A stretch of DNA of 32,487 bases from Prochloron sp. SulCav_FS08_3_32_3330 (GCA_020721205.1 DYNF01000049.1:1-32487), one strand, 5' to 3'. Positions 1-19,546 are shown, numbered from the stretch's first letter. The notes: generated from the letters alone by a model not told the origin. Numbers and translations: made by a program.

Positions 1-64
1 GGAATAGATGAAATTAAAAATAAAGTAACATTTATTCAGGGTAAAATGTTTTAAATAAACGCTC

Positions 65-148
65 GTAGTTGGGCTTCAGCCCTTTCCAAATTAATAAATG
101 GGCTGAAGCCCAACTACAAACTTAATCATTGGGCTGAAGCCCAACTAC
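65..148. repeat. Palindromic interspersed repeat, GGGCTTCAGCCC core, three arms
   Basis: One arm GTAGTTGGGCTTCAGCCC lies at 65-82. Its exact reverse complement is at 100-117 and again at 131-148. Arms 1 and 2 can form an 18-bp hairpin with a 17-base loop. The arms resemble the GTTGTTGGGCTTTAGCAC repeats at 6108-6132 and 23433-23492, so this is probably a member of the same genome-wide family. No gene overlaps it. Confidence 0.8.
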
Positions 149-156
149 AAACAAAC

Positions 157-190
157 TTAATTAATTGAACTAAGATCGGTTATAATATTA
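157..190 (+). repeat. Left copy of 34-base direct repeat flanking the ATPase-nuclease cassette
   Basis: Positions 157-190 match 2235-2268 at 29 of 34 bases without gaps, in the same orientation. The best-conserved stretch contains AACTAAGAT followed by an ATAATATTA end. The two copies bracket the genes at 215-2163. The copy includes the putative -10 box of the ATPase gene, so a shared promoter-like or repeat-derived motif is an alternative to an insertion scar. Confidence 0.5.
181..186 (+). promoter_or_regulatory. Possible -10 box (TATAAT) for the ATPase-nuclease operon
   Basis: A perfect TATAAT lies 28 bases before the ATG at 215. No good -35 element sits at 16-18 bases; a TTGAAC at 165-170 is only 10 bases upstream. 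No clear Shine-Dalgarno sequence precedes the ATG. In such AT-rich DNA a TATAAT alone is weak evidence. Confidence 0.3.
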
Positions 191-214
191 TTAACTATTG
201 ACTACTTAAACATT

Positions 215-1600
215 ATGAAAATTAAAGTAAAAAATCTTGGAGTTTTAAAAGAAGCATCATTTTCAGTAGGGGAAATGACCATTATTTGTGGTGAAAATAA
301 TACAGGTAAAACCTACGCAACTTACTCATTATTTGGTTTTTTATCTAGTTGGGAAAAAATAATTACCATTGATATTACAGAAACAGAAATTAATCAATTA
401 TTAGAAGATGGCGTAGTACAAATTGACGTATTAAAGTATTTTAAAAATCTCAAAATAATTTTAGAGAAATGTTGTCAAGAATATACAAAACAATTACCAG
501 AAATATTTGCCACCCCATCAGAAAGATTTGCTAAAACAGAATTTAAAATTGAGATTAACCCCGAAGAAAATCAGTTAAATCAACCCTATCAACAATCTAT
601 TAGTTCAGCTAAAACTAATCTTTTTTCCTTAATTAAAAAAGAAAATAGTCAAGAATTAATTGTTACTTTATTAGGGCAAATTAATCAAATAAAAATACCG
701 AAAGATATTATTAAACAAGTCATCAGTGATGCCCTTAAAGAAATAATTTTCCGCCCATTTTTTCCTAAAGCTTTTATCGCTAGTGCAGAAAGAACAGGTA
801 CAGCAATTTTTCGCAAAGAATTAAATTTTGCCCGTAATCGTTTATTAGAAGAAATTAGTAAATCTAATCAAGAACTTGATCCCTTTGAGCTTTTATTTAA
901 AGGCTATGATGACTATGCTTTACCAATAAAAAGTAATGTAGAATTTACCAGAAAATTAGAAACTATTGCCAAAAAAACCAGTTTTATTGCTGAAAAATAT
1001 CCTGATTTATTAAAGGATTTTGCTGATATTATTGGCGGAGAATATATTGTTACGAAAAATGATGAACTTTATTATGTTCCTAAAGGTAATAAAATTAAAC
1101 TTTCAATGGATGAAAGTTCTAGTGCAGTGCGCTCTTTATTAGATATTGGATTTTATCTTAAACATATAGCACAAAAAGGTGATTTATTAATCGTAGATGA
1201 ACCAGAATTAAACTTACATCCAGAAAATCAACGGCGAGTAGCCCGACTTTTTGCTAGATTAATTAATCTAGGAATTAAAGTATTTATTACTACCCATAGT
1301 GATTATTTAATTAAAGAATTAAACACTTTAATTATGCTCAATCAAGATAAGTCTTATTTAAGAGAAATTGCCCAAAGAGAAGGTTATCAAAAAGATGAAC
1401 TTTTAGACGCTAATCAAATTAAAGTTTATTTAGCACAATCAACATTAATTAAGTTAGAAGATAAACAAAGAAAAACCAATTGCCAAACCTTAATTTTAGC
1501 TAATATTAATCAAGAATTAGGGATAGAGATTGGTAGTTTTGATACAGCGATTGAAACAATGAATCGTATTCAAGAAGCAATTATTTGGGGGGAAGAATAG
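215..1600 (+). CDS. OLD/AAA_15-like ATPase, first gene of a two-gene nuclease cassette
   Basis: This 461-residue protein is an ABC/SMC-type ATPase of the OLD-like AAA_15/AAA_21 group. Walker A is GENNTGKT at residues 26-33. A signature-like ESSSAVRSL segment is at about 300-308. Walker B is LLIVDEPE, with D328 and E329, and the switch histidine is H361 in TTHSDYL. The middle (about 60-290) is a long insert typical of this group. OLD nucleases carry a C-terminal TOPRIM domain; here only about 100 residues follow the H-loop and no TOPRIM acidic motif is visible, so this looks like a stand-alone motor. Its stop TAG overlaps the GTG start of the next gene by one base, which implies translational coupling. 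The likely role is nucleic-acid sensing or cleavage with its partner, as in ATPase-nuclease phage defence systems; that role is inferred. ATP binding is near certain. Confidence 0.85.
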   Translation: MKIKVKNLGVLKEASFSVGEMTIICGENNTGKTYATYSLFGFLSSWEKIITIDITETEINQLLEDGVVQIDVLKYFKNLKIILEKCCQEYTKQLPEIFATPSERFAKTEFKIEINPEENQLNQPYQQSISSAKTNLFSLIKKENSQELIVTLLGQINQIKIPKDIIKQVISDALKEIIFRPFFPKAFIASAERTGTAIFRKELNFARNRLLEEISKSNQELDPFELLFKGYDDYALPIKSNVEFTRKLETIAKKTSFIAEKYPDLLKDFADIIGGEYIVTKNDELYYVPKGNKIKLSMDESSSAVRSLLDIGFYLKHIAQKGDLLIVDEPELNLHPENQRRVARLFARLINLGIKVFITTHSDYLIKELNTLIMLNQDKSYLREIAQREGYQKDELLDANQIKVYLAQSTLIKLEDKQRKTNCQTLILANINQELGIEIGSFDTAIETMNRIQEAIIWGEE

Positions 1601-2163
1601 TGGGTTATTATTCCGAAGATTTAATGATTCTTGAACAGATGATTAAAGATAATGCTAAAGTACCCTTAATTGATTCTTATGGAAAGAAACAAGTGATTTT
1701 AAAAGAAACTCAGGGGATTAATTATGAGGTAACAATTTTAGATATTCCTGAACAAACTTTAGTGATTCAATCTGATCTTTTTGAAGCACCTAAATCAATT
1801 TTTAAGAATAGTAAAGGGGAATGTAAAAGAAGCGATTTTATCCTAATATCAGATCAGGATAATCTCAAGGTAATTATGTTTATAGAAATGAAAGCAGGTA
1901 AAGCGATCGAAAAAGAGATTATACAGCAACTAAAAGGCTCAGAATGTTTAATTAGTTATTGTCGAGAAATTGGCAAAAAATTTTGGAATCAGATTAATTT
2001 TTTAGAAAAATATGAATATCGTTTTATTAGCATGAAACATATTAATCTAAATAAAAAACCTACTAGAGAAAAAAATTTACCAACTATTCATAATTCTCCT
2101 GAAAATATGTTAAAAATTTATGCTCCCAAGAAAATTCAATTTAATAAATTAATTGGTAAATAA
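1600..2163 (+). CDS. Putative PD-(D/E)XK-fold nuclease partner of the ATPase
   Basis: I do not recognise a named family. The protein has 187 residues from the GTG at 1600, which shares its G with the preceding TAG stop and has a GGGGGGAAG ribosome site just upstream. A TTG at 1585 is in frame but would sit in front of that site. The visible pattern is Asp79 in RSDFIL at a strand end, Glu96-x-Lys98 in FIEMKAG, then a helix with Gln110 (IIQQLKGS). This D...ExK...Q order is the usual active-site layout of PD-(D/E)XK nucleases. There is no signal peptide or membrane segment, and the C-terminus is basic. Coupling to an OLD-like ATPase suggests a split motor/nuclease defence module. The nuclease call rests on motif reading alone; a non-catalytic partner is possible. 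Confidence 0.55.
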   Translation: MGYYSEDLMILEQMIKDNAKVPLIDSYGKKQVILKETQGINYEVTILDIPEQTLVIQSDLFEAPKSIFKNSKGECKRSDFILISDQDNLKVIMFIEMKAGKAIEKEIIQQLKGSECLISYCREIGKKFWNQINFLEKYEYRFISMKHINLNKKPTREKNLPTIHNSPENMLKIYAPKKIQFNKLIGK

Positions 2164-2200
2164 GATAAAATAGATTAAGCTTAACTCCTTACAATAAACC

Positions 2201-2222
2201 GCCTCGAAATGAATTTCGAGGC
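2201..2222 (+). terminator. Hairpin after the ATPase-nuclease cassette
   Basis: GCCTCGAAAT at 2201-2210 pairs perfectly with ATTTCGAGGC at 2213-2222. It lies 38 bases after the nuclease stop. Only a weak TTAT follows, so termination would be inefficient, but the position at the operon end fits. Confidence 0.5.
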
Positions 2223-2234
2223 TTATAAAATCGT

Positions 2235-2268
2235 TTAATCAATTAAACTAAGATAGCTGATAATATTA
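2235..2268 (+). repeat. Right copy of 34-base direct repeat flanking the cassette
   Basis: This copy matches 157-190 at 29 of 34 positions in the same orientation and follows the cassette's terminal hairpin. It contains no evident gene. A HIP1 octamer follows at 2275-2282. Confidence 0.5.
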
Positions 2269-6135: not shown

Positions 6136-7056
6136 TTAAAAAGGTAAATCATTCTCATCTATCTCGGTAATTTTTAACTGTAAAAAACTACTAATTTCTT
6201 CCTCTATCGGTAACTGATCTAAATAATTTCTTAATTGTTTTTGGATCGGTTGAGTCAGATTAATGGTAAAATCTAAATCAAGATCAGATTCCTGCATTAA
6301 TTGAGCTAAATTTTGAAAAGAAATTTTTTTCGTCGTGCGACTTTGACTAGCTAATTTAAAACCTTGAAATTCAGAAATTTCTTGAAAATTCATCGCCTTT
6401 TTTAACCTTTCTTTTAAATGTTCAATTTCACTATTTAACTGTTTCCAACGATGTTCAAGTTGACGATAACGTAAAGTTAAATTAGTAATATTTTCCTTTT
6501 CTGGATCAGGATTAGCAAGGATATTAAACTGTAATAATCTAGTATGAAGTTGTGCCAAATAAATTACATCCATTTTTGCATAATTTAACTGAGTTTCTGT
6601 TAAAGGGCGTATTTTCCAGTCACTTTTTTGTTCAGTTTTATCAATATTAGTAAAATTACAAAATTTTTCCGTTAAAGTTTTTAGTGTAAAATCAGGAGTT
6701 GCTAATAAATAATAAGGGATTTGTTTCGCAATTTCTAAAGTACAAGTGACATTTTTAACCTTAGTTTTACCTAAAAATCTACAATCATATTTCGCATTAT
6801 GAAAAACTTTTTCAATCTCAGGATTAATCATAACTTTATTAATAAATTGAGCAATTAAATCAGGATAATTTAACAAATCTAAAATACAGACTTGATCCCC
6901 TTCTATATCTGTGGGATCATCTAAAATTGTAATTAAAGAAAGTTGAGGATTTTTAGTTTGATAATCAGCAGTTTCCGTATCTAACCATAAAATTTTAGCT
7001 TTTTGATAACGGGCGATTGTCTTTTCAATTAAATCAATTTCGGTTAAATATTGCAT
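6136..7056 (-). CDS. RNase D-like 3'-5' exonuclease (DEDDy)
   Basis: This is a 306-residue ribonuclease D-type exonuclease, expected to trim RNA 3' ends with two metal ions. Exo I is WLDTETA with D26 and E28. Exo II is HNAKYDCRFL, whose Asp follows Asn-Ala-Lys-Tyr. Exo III is YAKMDVIYL, the Tyr-x3-Asp of the DEDDy class. The exonuclease domain covers about 1-200. The last 100 residues contain a charged helix (about 205-225) and lack an obvious complete HRDC domain, so the protein is shorter than E. coli Rnd (375) but normal for cyanobacterial homologues. It is convergent with the gene ending at 6080. Known RNase D substrates are tRNA precursors; the substrate here is not shown. Confidence 0.88.
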   Translation of the reverse strand: MQYLTEIDLIEKTIARYQKAKILWLDTETADYQTKNPQLSLITILDDPTDIEGDQVCILDLLNYPDLIAQFINKVMINPEIEKVFHNAKYDCRFLGKTKVKNVTCTLEIAKQIPYYLLATPDFTLKTLTEKFCNFTNIDKTEQKSDWKIRPLTETQLNYAKMDVIYLAQLHTRLLQFNILANPDPEKENITNLTLRYRQLEHRWKQLNSEIEHLKERLKKAMNFQEISEFQGFKLASQSRTTKKISFQNLAQLMQESDLDLDFTINLTQPIQKQLRNYLDQLPIEEEISSFLQLKITEIDENDLPF

Positions 7057-9999: not shown

Positions 10000-12072
10000 T
10001 TAGTCATCATCGTCATCGTCATCGTCATCATTAATATTGCTATCTACATCATTATCAATGTTAATTTCTGTATTATCACTATCTTCCACATTAACATTAT
10101 TATTAATCGTCGTATTATTGATTGTGATATTACTAGCCACTAAACCTTGTTCTGTTAAAACTGATTGGAGTGCTTCAGCAAAACCGTCAGGTAAACTTTC
10201 AGGGTTAATTTCAATAATTGACACTTGACCCGGGAAAATCCGAGAAGAAGGTCCAACTTGTTTGAAAACAACCACTTGATCCCGTTCCCGACGACCTAAC
10301 GCTAAACCCCGTCCATGTCCATGTCCACGATGACCCGGTACAGCTACAAAATAGCGATCGCCCCGTAATAGGATCACAACGATGCGAGGTTGATCCGAAC
10401 TGGTCAAACTTAATAAATAAATAGTACGTCCGACCTCAGAATTTTCCCCACCAATCACTTCAATATTGGTATTACCACGACCCCGATCCCGATTCTCCCG
10501 ATCGCGATCCCGATCATCATCATCATCGTCATCATCATCACGATCAATAATGACAACAGAGCCATCTTCGGAAACGGCTTCGTTAATCAAAGTAGAAAAT
10601 TCAGGATCGAAGTCCCCTAAAGCACAAACCGTACAATTTTCAGGATCGAGACTATCAATAATTTCTTGTCCATCTAATTTTTCTAACCCTTCCTGAAAGT
10701 TAGTTTGTCCGGGGAAACCAGCAAATGCCACAAACCCATCACTGCGTCCTTGTAAACTAGCATTAGTTGACGCTTGTTCAAAATTAAATTGAGTATCTCG
10801 ACGCGCTCCACCCATACTTACCACTAAAGAAGGATCTAAAAGAGTAAATACACTTAACGCTTCCCCTTCAATCCGATAATCTAAAGGTTGAGTATAATCA
10901 AATTCTCCAGCTTGATTATATTGGTAAATATCACCAATAGCGATCGCTACTGCTCCAGTAGTGGGACCGATTTTCGTTTCGCTGGTAGCTTGTGTTCCAA
11001 TGGTTTGAACTTGGAATTTTTCATTAGCTTGACCAATAAAAACAATCCCATTTGCACCTTGGGGTATTTCCACTATTCCATCGGGAGGAGTTTCTAATAA
11101 ACTTTCATCAAAAGTAGCTTCATCACCTATTTCCGTATTAAGTGCGGTAGTTAAATCATCTTTGCTACCCGTAAAAATTACTCCCCCTTGATCATTCACC
11201 ACTTTTAAATTAGTAGTTTCATTAGGATCAATAGAAGCATTAACACCAGAATAATAACCAATAACTTCACCATTTTGTACTAAAGCAAAAAGTTGTCCCT
11301 GTGCAAGATTAGTATTAGGATCAACCCCCGTTACATCGGAGTTACCCACATCATAAACCTGAACAGTCGCCACCATCGAAATATTCGGATCTAATTGAGT
11401 GCCTTCCTCTGGAGTAACATCATTTCCTTTAAATTGGAATTTAACTCTTAAAGCAGAGGTTTCAGCCTCACTATTATTACTAATTCTTGTCCCATCAGAA
11501 AAACGATAGGTACTAGGAAGACCAATTAAACCATCATCTAAATTAGCTCCAAAATTACCCAGTTGAAGTGCGCCTTGATCCCCTTCAAATTGAATCGGAT
11601 CAGGAAGAAATAATTTAGAGTTAAAATTTTCAGGAGAGGCTAAAGTTCCGGGTAAATTTAAGAGAGTATCAAAAGAATTTAACGTAAATTCTAACTCCGT
11701 AGGACGATCCCGAAAGAGTACAGGAGATCCATTGCCTGATAATGCCAAACCAGATAAAGTTCCTTGTAAAATACCTGTATCATTGCGATCGGGAAGACCA
11801 TTAGCGTTAACATCAGTAAATTGAGAATTGATCGCATTAAAAACAGCTTGACTGGTATTACCACGATCAGTTTGTAAATTTAAGGTTTGAATATTCGCAC
11901 CATATAAAGAAATACCATTAGTTTCGGTAATTTCACTAGGTACAAAAAAAGCGGCTTGACCAGTCATAGAGCCACCTGTGACTTGAATTTGAGCGTTAAC
12001 GCCCGTCATGCCAAAAGAAACAGAACCGATTAAACCTAAGCTAAGAGCATAAACACTTGATTTAGAAAACAT
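10000..12072 (-). CDS. Secreted protein with two nine-aspartate tracts, unknown function
   Basis: No family is recognised. The ATG at 12072 has a GGAG ribosome site nine bases upstream, which gives 690 residues; an in-frame TTG five codons earlier overlaps that site. A signal peptide is clear, with cleavage after Ala27 (VNA/QI). Residues 28 to about 500 are beta-rich, Asn/Asp/Gly/Thr-rich and nearly cysteine-free, apart from one CTVC pair near 482. Nine aspartates at 512-520 are followed by a RDRDRENRDRGRG linker. A folded segment with GHRGHGHGRG follows, and the protein ends in nine aspartates (682-690) after an NNTTINNN stretch. The aspartates come from GAT/GAC triplet runs. Acidic runs plus a His-rich patch suggest divalent-cation binding outside the membrane; this is inference. 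No TPS domain is visible, so it is probably not the substrate of the TpsB at 7300. Confidence 0.85.
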   Translation of the reverse strand: MFSKSSVYALSLGLIGSVSFGMTGVNAQIQVTGGSMTGQAAFFVPSEITETNGISLYGANIQTLNLQTDRGNTSQAVFNAINSQFTDVNANGLPDRNDTGILQGTLSGLALSGNGSPVLFRDRPTELEFTLNSFDTLLNLPGTLASPENFNSKLFLPDPIQFEGDQGALQLGNFGANLDDGLIGLPSTYRFSDGTRISNNSEAETSALRVKFQFKGNDVTPEEGTQLDPNISMVATVQVYDVGNSDVTGVDPNTNLAQGQLFALVQNGEVIGYYSGVNASIDPNETTNLKVVNDQGGVIFTGSKDDLTTALNTEIGDEATFDESLLETPPDGIVEIPQGANGIVFIGQANEKFQVQTIGTQATSETKIGPTTGAVAIAIGDIYQYNQAGEFDYTQPLDYRIEGEALSVFTLLDPSLVVSMGGARRDTQFNFEQASTNASLQGRSDGFVAFAGFPGQTNFQEGLEKLDGQEIIDSLDPENCTVCALGDFDPEFSTLINEAVSEDGSVVIIDRDDDDDDDDDRDRDRENRDRGRGNTNIEVIGGENSEVGRTIYLLSLTSSDQPRIVVILLRGDRYFVAVPGHRGHGHGRGLALGRRERDQVVVFKQVGPSSRIFPGQVSIIEINPESLPDGFAEALQSVLTEQGLVASNITINNTTINNNVNVEDSDNTEINIDNDVDSNINDDDDDDDDD

Positions 12073-16155: not shown

Positions 16156-17832
16156 TTACCAAAAACCGCCCCTTTTACCATCGGGTTTAATCGTAGCCCA
16201 ATTGGTTTTAGTTAATGCTAATTGTTCTGGGGTAATTTTAGCATTAGTTAAATTTGCCCCACAAAAATTAACCCCTTTTAAATTAGCTTTACTGAAATAA
16301 GCAAAACTTAAATCAGCCCCCCGAAAATCCGCCCCTTCTAAGTTAGAAGCACTAAAATAAGCTCTCCCTAAATTAGCATTTTGCATATTAACTTGAATTA
16401 AACTAGCTCTGCCAAAATCCGCATTAGCTAAATTTGCTCCTTGAAAATTAGTTTTATTCAGTTTAGATTGATGAAAAATTGCCCCGGATAGATCAGATTC
16501 GGGTAATTTTAAATAACTTAAATTTTGATCAGTAAAATCCCTTCTCCCATTACGATAAGCAACTAAAAGTTCTTGTTCGGTTAATCTTTGGGGAATTTTT
16601 TTCTGTCCTTGGGGATTAACTTTTTGAGTACCTCCTGCCCTTTGATAACTTCCGGTGGTACTTTGAGGGGGATTTTGGGGTGTTCTTGTGCCAAAATTAT
16701 CTAAAGAACGATTCCGATTAACGGGATTTGATGTCCCACTACTATCTAAACCCGGACGACGGGCGCGACGGTTACGAATAGCATCAGCTAACTGAGAATG
16801 CCCGGTAGTATGACTATCGGTAGAGGAAATATTAGTCTGACCAGTGCCAAAGGGATTAATAATACCCGTTTTAGGCTCATCGGCTGGTTGAGTGGGTTTT
16901 GCCACTAAACCTTGAGCTAAACTATCCATATAAGGCTCCATCTCTAAAGCGTCAAGGACTTCTTGGGCGCTTTGATAACGATGGCGCACTGATACTTCTA
17001 GCATTTTTTGTAAAACCCCAGCCAGATGACTACTAATACTGACATATTTTTGCCATTCCATGTCTCCGGTAGCGGGATTATAACCCATATCTTTAGGGGA
17101 TTTAGCCGTGAGTAAATAAAGACAAGTCGCGCCTAAAGCGTAGACATCACTAGCATAAACGGGACGCATTGCCATTTGTTCAGGAGGGGCAAAACCCGGA
17201 GTTCCTACGGCAAAAGAGGTTAAAGCTGTTTGTTCCGAGCTATTTTCAGCTAATTCTACATTAACTTGATTTTTCACTGCGCCAAAATCAATTAAAACTA
17301 ACTTGCGATCCTGTTCTCTACGAATTAAATTAGCAGGTTTAATATCTCGGTGAATCACTTGATGAGCGTGAATATATTGAAGCATGGGGAGCATTTCGCT
17401 CAAAAATTGTTTTAATCCGGCTTCACTAAAGACTCCATTTTTTCTCACTTCTTCCTGTAGGTTTTTGCCTTTCACATATTCTTGAATGAGGTAAAACTGT
17501 TGATTATGTTCAAAATAATCTAAAAGTCTTGGCACTTGGGGATGATTTCCGATGCGTCCTAAAGTTTGGGCTTCCCTTTCAAATAATTCCCTTGCCATCT
17601 GAAATACTTGAGGCACATTACTAGCGGGGCGTAACTGTTTAATCACACAAGGGGGTGTACCCGGTAGGGAAATATCTGCCGCTAGGAAAGTTGCACCAAA
17701 ACCGCCCTGACCTAAACTTCTCACGACTAAATAACGATCTTTGAGAATCAAACTTGAACCACAAGCTTGACAGATTCTGGTTTTGGGTGGGTTTTTAGGA
17801 TTAGGACATTGAGGATTTATGCAATAGCTCAT
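16156..17832 (-). CDS. Ser/Thr protein kinase with zinc-ribbon-like start and pentapeptide repeats (SpkB-like)
   Basis: This 558-residue eukaryotic-type kinase has all core residues: glycine loop GQGGFG (41-46), Lys65, HRDIKPAN with D163 and N168, and DFG at 182-184. The N-terminus has four cysteines (C4, C9, C21, C24) in a zinc-ribbon-like pattern. The kinase domain covers about 33-300. A Ser/Thr/Gln/Pro-rich disordered linker spans about 310-430. The C-terminus (about 440-545) holds A(D/N)LxX pentapeptide repeats such as ANLKG and ADFRGADLS, a right-handed beta-helix surface for protein contacts. This layout matches Synechocystis SpkB, a kinase reported to work in oxidative stress and glycyl-tRNA synthetase phosphorylation; orthology is probable, not proven. 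No transmembrane segment is seen. It is monocistronic and convergent with hemH. Confidence 0.92.
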   Translation of the reverse strand: MSYCINPQCPNPKNPPKTRICQACGSSLILKDRYLVVRSLGQGGFGATFLAADISLPGTPPCVIKQLRPASNVPQVFQMARELFEREAQTLGRIGNHPQVPRLLDYFEHNQQFYLIQEYVKGKNLQEEVRKNGVFSEAGLKQFLSEMLPMLQYIHAHQVIHRDIKPANLIRREQDRKLVLIDFGAVKNQVNVELAENSSEQTALTSFAVGTPGFAPPEQMAMRPVYASDVYALGATCLYLLTAKSPKDMGYNPATGDMEWQKYVSISSHLAGVLQKMLEVSVRHRYQSAQEVLDALEMEPYMDSLAQGLVAKPTQPADEPKTGIINPFGTGQTNISSTDSHTTGHSQLADAIRNRRARRPGLDSSGTSNPVNRNRSLDNFGTRTPQNPPQSTTGSYQRAGGTQKVNPQGQKKIPQRLTEQELLVAYRNGRRDFTDQNLSYLKLPESDLSGAIFHQSKLNKTNFQGANLANADFGRASLIQVNMQNANLGRAYFSASNLEGADFRGADLSFAYFSKANLKGVNFCGANLTNAKITPEQLALTKTNWATIKPDGKRGGFW

Positions 17833-17991: not shown

Positions 17992-19386
17992 TTAATGGTT
18001 CTTTTTTTCCAGTAGTAAGTAGGTTGTCATTTGTCCTTTCCCTTTTATGTAAATCATACCTCTGTCCTCAAAAAGATAGTGATCTTTGAGTTTATGATAG
18101 GTTGCTGAGGATACTTGAATTGTCCCCGCAATCCCTGATGATTCCATTCTACTAGCCGTATTCACCGCATCTCCCCACAGATCATAAATAAATTTTTTTT
18201 TGCCGATCACTCCAGCGATCGCTTCCCCACTATTAATTCCAATTCTAATACTTAAGGAGGTATTTTTAGTAAGATTAAATTCTCTAATTTTTTGTTGCAT
18301 TTCTAATGCTAACTGTGCGATCGCAAGAGCGTGATCTTCTCTTGGGATAGGAATACCACTTGCTACCATGTAAGCATCCCCAATCGTTTTAATTTTTTCT
18401 ACATTATATTGATCACATAATTGATCAAAAGTGGAGAAAATTTGATTTAATAATTCGATTAATTCTTGAGGGGAAATAGATTGAGAAAGTTTAGTAAAAC
18501 CGACTAAATCAGCAAATAAAATACTAACTTCGGAAAAAGATTGGGCAAGACAACCTTGTTTTTCTTTTAATTGTGTAGCAATAGTTGGGGGTAAAATATT
18601 TAATAATAACTGTTCAGATTTGTCCTGTTCTATTTTTAAAATTGATTCGGTTTCATAAACCCTAGTAAACATTTCTTGAAATGCGATCATTACTTCTCCT
18701 AATTCATCATTGCGTTTAATATAATTAGAATGAAAAATATTTTTTTGATCAACTTGTCTTAAAACATCAGGGGCTTTAATTAAATCATCTCTTAGTTGTA
18801 AAATGGGGGTAATAACGATGATATTTAAAACTATCATCATTACCCCGGTGACAAAAAGAGAAATTATTAGAACTAAAAAAATAATTCTTCCTTTATAATA
18901 CCATAATTCTTCTTGAATTAAATTTCCATCACAACGAATCACTAAAATATGATTATTAGATAATACTTCTTGAGAAAATACGAGATCATAACGCCGTTTT
19001 TTTGGATACTTTTTAATTAAAAGTTTTTGCTTGTTAAAATCAAAAAAAGATAATTGAGGATTTTCGCCATAACTGTTAATTAATTGTCCATTTTCCTGAT
19101 AAAGAGAAGCCCCTAAAATTGTGCCTAAATTAGAATTAATTTGTAAAGTTTTAAGCTGATCTAAAAATTCTGGTTCTGAAATTTCTGGAGTCGTCATAAA
19201 TAACCAAGATATTTTACCCGAAATAGATTGTTGAAGTTGAATTAATAATTCCTTTTCTCTTTTCTGAACAGAAGGGATTAAAATAATAATTTCAATCACA
19301 ACAATACTTCCAAAGATCCACAAAATTATTTTACGAGATAAAAGAGATTTAAAAGGATTACAATTTTGAAAAAGTTTTTTAAACAT
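17992..19386 (-). CDS. Membrane-bound class III adenylate cyclase
   Basis: This 464-residue sensor cyclase makes cAMP from ATP. The layout is TM1 (about 20-42), a periplasmic sensor of about 120 residues, TM2 (about 163-190), a HAMP-like linker with ITPILQLRDDL, a signalling helix, and the catalytic domain (about 285-464). Metal-binding aspartates are D293 (FADLVGFT) and D337 (TIGDAY). Adenine-specifying residues are Lys333 and Asp406 (LWGDAVN), which argue for adenylate rather than guanylate cyclase. Asn409 and Arg413 stabilise the transition state. All catalytic positions are kept. The ATG at 19386 is preferred to a TTG five codons upstream; neither has a strong ribosome site. Closest in type to cyanobacterial Cya proteins with extracytoplasmic sensors; the signal is unknown. 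Confidence 0.92.
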   Translation of the reverse strand: MFKKLFQNCNPFKSLLSRKIILWIFGSIVVIEIIILIPSVQKREKELLIQLQQSISGKISWLFMTTPEISEPEFLDQLKTLQINSNLGTILGASLYQENGQLINSYGENPQLSFFDFNKQKLLIKKYPKKRRYDLVFSQEVLSNNHILVIRCDGNLIQEELWYYKGRIIFLVLIISLFVTGVMMIVLNIIVITPILQLRDDLIKAPDVLRQVDQKNIFHSNYIKRNDELGEVMIAFQEMFTRVYETESILKIEQDKSEQLLLNILPPTIATQLKEKQGCLAQSFSEVSILFADLVGFTKLSQSISPQELIELLNQIFSTFDQLCDQYNVEKIKTIGDAYMVASGIPIPREDHALAIAQLALEMQQKIREFNLTKNTSLSIRIGINSGEAIAGVIGKKKFIYDLWGDAVNTASRMESSGIAGTIQVSSATYHKLKDHYLFEDRGMIYIKGKGQMTTYLLLEKKNH

Positions 19387-19546
19387 GATATTATTAAGCA
19401 ATTGACAAGAGACAATTTATCATTGATAATAAAGGTTTAAATAATTATTTATTATCTATCTTCAATGATTGACTATTTATTATAGAATTTAATTCTACTT
19501 TAAATTTTAGCTAAATTCCGTATTAAAACTAAAAAAAGATCTCAAG

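What the first reader, a model, noticed from the sequence alone, without database searches (positions are those of the whole stretch)
157..2268. Split OLD-like ATPase plus PD-(D/E)XK nuclease cassette, candidate undescribed defence module
Seen: an ATPase with Walker A, Walker B (DEPE) and a THSD switch, but no evident TOPRIM domain, overlaps by one base a 187-residue protein with Asp79, Glu96-x-Lys98 and Gln110. Known: OLD-family systems such as GajA and the PARIS ATPase-TOPRIM pair use a similar ATPase with a TOPRIM effector. Inference: here the effector has been replaced by a separate PD-(D/E)XK-type nuclease, giving a compact two-gene motor/nuclease module. I do not recognise this pairing as a named system.
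Basis: partly seen in the sequence, partly recalled or inferred. Interest (0 to 1): 0.8.

Follow-up and report, generated by a model that had tools for sequence, protein, structure and literature searches.

The report
Cyanobacterial PD-T4-4-like ATPase-nuclease defence pair
This is a real two-gene anti-phage-type cassette (an ATP-driven sensor protein plus a small DNA- or RNA-cutting enzyme) of a kind already catalogued and, in distant relatives, already tested, so it is not a new system, although its habit of sitting inside larger restriction-like defence loci is worth a look.

Summary
At 215-1600 (+) lies a 461-aa OLD-type ABC ATPase without a Toprim domain. It overlaps by one base a 187-aa protein (1600-2163) with Asp79, Glu96-x-Lys98 and Gln110. 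These residues are invariant in 18 aligned sequences, and the predicted fold has PD-(D/E)XK topology.

The novelty claim fails. PADLOC-DB assigns both proteins to one catalogued candidate system, PDC-M47 (769 and 248 bits). The ATPase also scores 539 bits against PD-T4-4_A, and intermediate pairs link PDC-M47 to PD-T4-4, which came from a phage-resistance selection in E. coli. The similar Vibrio system WonAB aborts infection by stopping translation.

The pair is a tightly linked, patchily distributed module: 21 of 149 genomes, always with both genes; 29 of 30 nuclease hits in a phylum-wide sample had the ATPase next door.

New here is the context. In two cyanobacteria the pair lies between drmD and drmMI of DISARM loci. 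The closest copy (90% identity) is on a plasmid between a methyltransferase and a PLD-type helicase gene. In the window's genome, four copies of one promoter-like box flank this pair and a small gene beside that helicase, and were found nowhere else.

Verdict: new member of a known kind, modest interest.

The parts
1..53 (+). 3' end of a truncated upstream gene (GIDEIKNKVTFIQGKMF*), probably a DUF1156/Hma-like DNA methyltransferase; the contig starts here
   Evidence: 10 of 17 residues match the C-terminus GLDEIKEKVSYYQGKLL of the methyltransferase upstream of the pair on the Annamia plasmid; contig C99 of the same genome ends inside the N-terminus of the same gene, 92% identical over 24 residues
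163..190 (+). promoter-like 'P box' copy 1 (AATTGAACTAAGATCGGTTATAATATTA, contains TATAAT)
   Evidence: four copies in the 4.73-Mb genome, none for the reversed control pattern
215..1600 (+). gene A: OLD-type ABC ATPase, 461 aa, no Toprim domain (PDC-M47A / PD-T4-4_A-like)
   Evidence: PADLOC PDC-M47A 769 bits full length, PD-T4-4_A 539 bits; Pfam AAA_15 3e-28; model pLDDT 84
290..313 (+). Walker A (GENNTGKT, K32)
   Evidence: sequence; K32 invariant in 23 aligned sequences
1196..1207 (+). Walker B / catalytic Glu (DEPE)
   Evidence: sequence; invariant
1292..1303 (+). H-loop (THSD)
   Evidence: sequence; T360, H361 and S362 invariant
1600..2163 (+). gene B: PD-(D/E)XK-type nuclease, 187 aa, one-base overlap with A (PDC-M47B)
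   Evidence: PADLOC PDC-M47B 248 bits; AlphaFold2 pLDDT 87.8 with PD-(D/E)XK strand/helix order; top PDB fold matches mostly restriction-type nucleases, none significant
1834..1893 (+). catalytic core of B: D79 ... E96-x-K98
   Evidence: invariant in 18 close sequences and in PD-T4-4-type partners
2201..2222 (+). hairpin GCCTCGAAAT-GA-ATTTCGAGGC after the operon (possible terminator; related repeats elsewhere in the genome)
   Evidence: sequence; related copies
2241..2268 (+). P box copy 2, downstream of the pair (on the plasmid and on contig C186 a P box directly precedes the PLD-type helicase gene)

Best explanation
The two genes are a tightly linked, overlapping, horizontally mobile anti-phage module of the PD-T4-4/WonAB kind, catalogued in PADLOC as candidate PDC-M47. 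Protein A, an OLD-type ABC ATPase, most likely dimerises with ATP at the interface, holds protein B and senses an event of infection (trigger unknown). On activation it licenses B, a PD-(D/E)XK nuclease, to cut nucleic acid and end the infection, either by stopping the host's translation, as reported for WonB, or by cutting DNA. Shown here: two intact genes with a one-base overlap, ATPase motifs, invariant D-ExK core, PD-(D/E)XK topology of the model, near-obligate co-occurrence, patchy distribution, presence on a plasmid and inside DISARM loci. Inferred from relatives: complex formation, ATP-dependent control of B, defence activity, abortive outcome. Unknown: trigger and target.
For: Both proteins match one catalogued candidate system over nearly their full length. 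Co-occurrence: 21 of 149 genomes have B and the same 21 have A (20 above 680 bits, one split). In a 386-genome phylum sample 29 of 30 B hits have A within 1.5 kb; the exception is a marginal hit at 4e-4. One-base overlap conserved. D79/E96/K98 invariant even against partners of 15-21% identity. B model pLDDT 87.8: D79 precedes strand 80-86, E96 ends strand 89-97, K98 follows, Q110 is in helix 104-128. Intermediates bridge to PD-T4-4: the L051 partner hits PD-T4-4_B at 67 bits and PDC-M47B at 33 bits, the L053 pair is PD-T4-4 (527 and 333 bits); enterobacterial plasmid and Vibrio phage pairs fall in PD-T4-4, most with weak PDC-M47B matches. Mobility and defence context: plasmid copy, phage copy next to a CI repressor gene, between DrmD and DrmMI in L005 and in G087, there with DrmA and DrmB. 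Purifying selection between window and plasmid A: dN 0.049, dS 0.38 by NG86. Function of relatives: PMC9519451, PMC12137116.
Against: No phage assay of this subfamily was found in the sources searched; the name PDC-M47 is in no held paper. No PDB fold match of B is significant (best E 0.026; FokI probability 0.80) and no Pfam family fits. B's sequence link to PD-T4-4_B is weak (26.6 bits). Most chromosomal copies have no recognised defence gene beside them (judged by eye and only partly scanned). A-B complex formation was not modelled.
Confidence: 0.85

Rival explanations
1. Accessory arm of a larger methyltransferase-helicase (DISARM-like) defence locus: the pair is co-regulated with, and works with, a DNA methyltransferase and an SNF2/PLD-type helicase.
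For: In L005 and G087 the pair lies between DrmD and DrmMI of DISARM loci. On the Annamia plasmid it lies between a DUF1156/Hma-like methyltransferase and a PLD-type helicase. In the window's genome the apparent end of that methyltransferase precedes the pair, an 85%-identical helicase lies on contig C186, and one promoter-like box occurs four times in 4.73 Mb, at these genes only.
Against: Most of about 20 examined loci have no such neighbours, so the pair probably works alone. The window genome's methyltransferase is not assembled and the C116-C186 link is unproven. The repeated boxes could be recombination scars.
Confidence: 0.15
2. Direct restriction: A loads on invading DNA and B cuts it, sparing the host, with no abortive infection (a variant of the best explanation that differs in the outcome).
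For: PD-(D/E)XK enzymes are mostly DNases (general knowledge); 7 of 11 systems with DNA-binding or cleavage features in Vassallo et al. gave direct immunity (PMC9519451); association with modification genes.
Against: The closest mechanistically studied system, WonAB, leaves DNA intact and blocks translation (PMC12137116).
Confidence: 0.3
3. Toxin-antitoxin pair in which A simply neutralises a toxic B.
For: B is broken while A is intact in three loci: IS insertion on the Annamia plasmid, frameshift in G059, truncation in G142, as expected if B is costly.
Against: In WonAB the effector is toxic only when an active ATPase is present (PMC12137116); all ATPase motifs are kept, more than sequestration needs.
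Confidence: 0.1
4. Housekeeping DNA-repair pair (SbcCD- or UvrA-like ATPase with a nuclease).
For: A resembles Rad50/SMC and UvrA ATPases.
Against: Only 14% of relatives carry it, flanks differ between genera, copies occur on plasmids and phages, and defence genes are neighbours in some genomes.
Confidence: 0.03

Closest known systems
PDC-M47 (PADLOC-DB v2 'phage defence candidate', two genes)
   Same: Both proteins, nearly full length, as adjacent genes: A 769 bits, B 248 bits
   Different: No difference found; it is a candidate only and no held paper names it
PD-T4-4 (Vassallo et al. 2022, PMC9519451; AAA_15 ATPase + PD-(D/E)XK per PMC10952713)
   Same: Same architecture and gene order; A 539 bits to one PD-T4-4_A model; active-site D-ExK shared; intermediate pairs link the two
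   Different: B only 26.6 bits to PD-T4-4_B; PD-T4-4-type B proteins are 15-19% identical to it
WonAB (V. cholerae, PMC12137116)
   Same: OLD-ABC ATPase distinct from the OLD/Gabija/PARIS type + small PD-(D/E)XK-variant protein; both genes required there; its authors relate it to PD-T4-4
   Different: WonB is 16 kDa against 187 aa here; sequences not compared directly; WonAB homologues reported mainly in Gram-negative bacteria
OLD / Gabija GajA / PARIS AriA
   Same: Same ATPase superfamily (AriA 106 bits, Old 53, GajA 43)
   Different: Those use Toprim effectors (in the same chain in OLD and GajA); none here
Septu / retron PtuAB
   Same: ABC ATPase + separate small nuclease gene; best fold matches of A are PtuA
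   Different: PtuB is an HNH nuclease; B here has a PD-(D/E)XK core

Membership tests
PDC-M47 (PADLOC) | ATPase matching PDC-M47A over its length | tested here: met
   769.5 bits, residues 1-461 to profile 1-461 of 461
PDC-M47 (PADLOC) | adjacent partner matching PDC-M47B | tested here: met
   248.3 bits, residues 6-186; one-base overlap
PD-T4-4 | PD-T4-4_A-type ATPase | tested here: met
   539 bits over 459 residues, but lower than to PDC-M47A
PD-T4-4 | PD-T4-4_B-type nuclease | tested here: inconclusive
   26.6 bits, residues 70-160 only; shared D79/E96/K98
PD-T4-4 | protects against T4-type phage | not testable with these tools
   needs plating
WonAB | WonA/WonB sequence homology | not tested
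   WonAB sequences were not fetched; only published motifs compared
WonAB | PD-(D/E)XK effector that inhibits translation under ATPase control | not testable with these tools
   fold supported, activity not assayed
PD-(D/E)XK nuclease superfamily | D ... (D/E)xK core in strand-strand-helix-strand order | tested here: met
   invariant residues; strand/helix order in the model
PD-(D/E)XK nuclease superfamily | significant structural match to a solved member | tested here: inconclusive
   top matches include BsmI, FokI, Mus81, Hjc and DdmD, but E >= 0.026
OLD/Gabija/PARIS | Toprim nuclease domain in or beside the ATPase | tested here: not met
   no Toprim in Pfam or fold; the partner has a PD-(D/E)XK core

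The most novel reading that the evidence does not exclude
In some cyanobacteria this ATPase-nuclease pair has been recruited as a co-regulated third arm of methyltransferase-helicase (DISARM-like) defence loci: it shares a dedicated promoter box with the helicase and supplies the killing nuclease when the first arm fails or is inhibited.
Probability: 0.15. Interest if true: 0.55.

Novelty: new member of a known kind. Interest (0 to 1): 0.3.

Why it matters
The finding itself adds a cyanobacterial member to a catalogued but untested candidate (PDC-M47), and shows by intermediate pairs that PDC-M47 and PD-T4-4 belong to one superfamily of OLD-type ATPase plus PD-(D/E)XK nuclease; WonAB is of the same kind by its published description. 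That lets the mechanism reported for WonAB (ATPase-licensed nuclease, translation arrest) be used as a concrete hypothesis for a family found in about 8-14% of sampled cyanobacteria. The recurrent placement inside DISARM and methyltransferase-helicase loci, with a shared promoter-like box, makes a testable question of whether such pairs act as back-up arms of modification-based defence.

Tried and rejected
1) Novel system: rejected by PADLOC matches of both genes and the literature. 2) VRR_NUC as B's family: E 0.09, below cut-off and in one member only. 3) The 157-190/2235-2268 repeat as an attachment site: no integrase seen beside it, and two further copies lie around an unrelated small gene on contig C186; a promoter-like box or recombination scar fits better. 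4) That repeat as part of a dispersed family: the neighbouring GGGCTGAAGCCC sequence has 85 matches and the hairpin region many, but the P box pattern itself only four. 5) G065 as a broken B: its gap is a run of N, so an assembly gap, not counted. 8) NCBIfam gave no match above cut-off for A and none at all for B. 9) Krishnan et al. (OLD-ABC + REase survey) is not held and could not be read; it is cited only through PMC12137116 and PMC12409358.

Full report
OBSERVATION. The window is the first 32.5 kb of a contig (C116) of a 4.73-Mb cyanobacterial draft genome; its closest named relative of the pair is in Annamia dubia, Geminocystaceae. All motifs named are present. They are not chance: K32, E329 and H361 of A are invariant in 23 aligned sequences, and E74, R77, D79, E96, K98 and Q110 of B are invariant in 18. 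Between the window and the Annamia plasmid copy, A has dN 0.049 and dS 0.38 (NG86; YN00 gives dS 0.94), so it is under purifying selection.

WHAT THE PROTEINS ARE. A is Pfam AAA_15 (3e-28). Its model (pLDDT 84) matches PtuA, retron and Rad50/SMC ATPases in the PDB (E down to 4e-10). It has no Toprim domain. B has no Pfam family. Its model (pLDDT 87.8, pTM 0.86) has the PD-(D/E)XK order: D79 just before strand 80-86, E96 at the end of strand 89-97, K98 next, then helix 104-128 carrying Q110, then strand 139-146. The best PDB matches are largely restriction-fold nucleases (BsmI, FokI, Mus81, Bax1, Hjc, DdmD, HamA, MunI, BamHI), but none is individually significant (best E 0.026, FokI probability 0.80). 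The assignment therefore rests on the invariant core plus topology plus homology to PD-T4-4_B models, not on one structural hit.

IT IS A CATALOGUED CANDIDATE. PADLOC-DB gives PDC-M47A 769 bits over all 461 residues and PDC-M47B 248 bits over 181 residues. PDC stands for 'phage defence candidate' (PMC11514479). The second-best ATPase family is PD-T4-4_A (539 bits); PD-T4-4_B matches B only weakly (26.6 bits). Two other cyanobacterial pairs fill the gap: in L051 the B-like protein hits PD-T4-4_B at 67 and PDC-M47B at 33 bits, and L053 is a plain PD-T4-4 pair (527 and 333 bits). Pairs on E. coli, E. albertii and Serratia plasmids and on a Vibrio phage fall in PD-T4-4, with weak PDC-M47B matches in three of the four partners. 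D79, E96 and K98 are invariant across the whole set, including partners only 15-21% identical. I conclude that PDC-M47 and PD-T4-4 are two branches of one OLD-type-ATPase + PD-(D/E)XK superfamily.

WHAT IS KNOWN OF RELATIVES. PD-T4-4 was isolated in an E. coli phage-resistance selection and lies in an integrative-conjugative-like element (PMC9519451); its domains are listed as AAA ATPase and PD(D/E)XK (PMC10952713). WonAB of Vibrio cholerae has the same architecture; both genes and all active sites are needed; infection is aborted without lysis; the effector is toxic only together with an active ATPase; DNA stays intact and translation stops (PMC12137116). Its authors place it with PD-T4-4 and with an earlier in silico OLD-ABC + REase operon. 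I did not compare WonAB sequences directly.

CONSERVATION TOGETHER. In 149 genomes (mostly of the same order) B occurs in 21; the same 21 have an A ortholog (20 above 680 bits, one split by stop codons in G122), and no other genome has an A above 420 bits. In G129 the B hits are spread over two contigs, an assembly break. In a phylum-wide sample of 386 genomes 30 had a B hit, and 29 of these have A within 1.5 kb; the exception scores only 4e-4. The one-base overlap is common in relatives. The partner relationship is real and near-obligate.

CONTEXT. Flanks differ between genera, and many copies lie among genes that look like housekeeping ones (only selected neighbours were scanned), so the pair probably works alone. 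Four contexts are different. In L005 the pair lies between DrmD (1105 bits) and DrmMI (1272 bits). In G087 it lies between DrmD (1404 bits) and DrmMI (1691 bits), with DrmB and DrmA beyond. On Annamia plasmid pANN4383.03 the 90%-identical copy lies between a DUF1156/Hma-like methyltransferase and a PLD-type helicase. In the window's own genome the contig begins with a 17-codon 3' end resembling that methyltransferase (GIDEIKNKVTFIQGKMF against GLDEIKEKVSYYQGKLL). Contig C99 ends 24 codons into the same gene, and an 85%-identical helicase sits at the end of contig C186, whose last 55 bases repeat window 36-90.

THE P BOX. AATTGAACTAAGATNNNTTATAATATTA occurs four times in the genome (up to 3 mismatches allowed, none for the reversed pattern): before A (163-190), after B (2241-2268), before a 78-aa ORF on C186 and before the helicase. 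On the plasmid the box also precedes the helicase (10077-10127) and, partially, A (6930-6955). This suggests either co-regulation of the methyltransferase/helicase locus and the pair, or recombination between promoter regions that moved the pair in or out. I cannot decide between these.

MECHANISM. Shown: overlapping, obligately paired genes; conserved ATPase and nuclease centres; mobility. Inferred: A senses and licenses B. The outcome is probably growth arrest, by analogy with WonAB (abortive infection by this route perhaps 0.45), with direct DNA restriction as the main alternative (0.3). Three copies with intact A and broken B (IS insertion with TA duplication on the plasmid, frameshift in G059, truncation in G142), against one with broken A and intact B (G122), fit a costly effector, but the numbers are small.

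VERDICT. New member of a known kind; interest 0.3.

Noticed in passing
window 163-190 and 2241-2268; G000:C186 67564-67591(-) and 66982-67009(-); L089 10077-10127: A promoter-like 'P box' found only four times in 4.73 Mb, flanking the A-B pair and lying before a 78-aa ORF and a PLD-type SNF2 helicase; also before the helicase on the Annamia plasmid.
   Followed up: partly
L005 2886-15987; L109 3005-13771 with L124 8883-14707: The pair is inserted between drmD and drmMI of DISARM loci in two unrelated cyanobacteria.
   Followed up: partly
L089 8386-10076 (AP025633.1): On the Annamia dubia plasmid the nuclease gene is split by a roughly 1.1-kb insertion carrying a 345-aa ORF (IS-like, TA duplicated), while the ATPase is intact.
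   Followed up: yes
L055 866-2832 and L056 836-2820 (G093:C45, G003:C16): Related ATPases (PD-T4-4_A 190-210 bits) with a third, very divergent small partner (KICDLIVF...CFVELK core) that matches PADLOC only at 16-25 bits (PDC-M29B): possibly an uncatalogued branch.
   Followed up: partly
window 1-152: A GGGCTGAAGCCCAACTAC palindromic repeat with 85 matches in the genome lies just upstream of the cassette; the contig starts here.
   Followed up: partly
G000:C99 10879-10951, C116 1-53, C186 67783-67837: The methyltransferase gene seems to fall in an assembly gap: its start ends one contig and its apparent 3' end starts C116, with a shared stretch at the end of C186, suggesting two copies or a repeat.
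   Followed up: partly
window 16159-17832 (-): Ser/Thr kinase with pentapeptide repeats scores 425 bits to PADLOC PD-T4-6; such kinases are common in cyanobacteria, so this may be over-annotation.
   Followed up: no
window 17995-19401 (-): Protein with a C-terminal nucleotide-cyclase-like region (PADLOC PycC 47 bits), next to the kinase gene; probably ordinary signalling.
   Followed up: no
G036:C70 3548-3894 and G059:C1 6225930-6226276: Orphan, degraded copies of B with an in-frame stop; no full-length A was reported there.
   Followed up: no
L062/L064 3305-3541 (-): A 78-aa ORF without family matches lies between two P boxes next to the helicase; its relation to the cassette is unknown.
   Followed up: no
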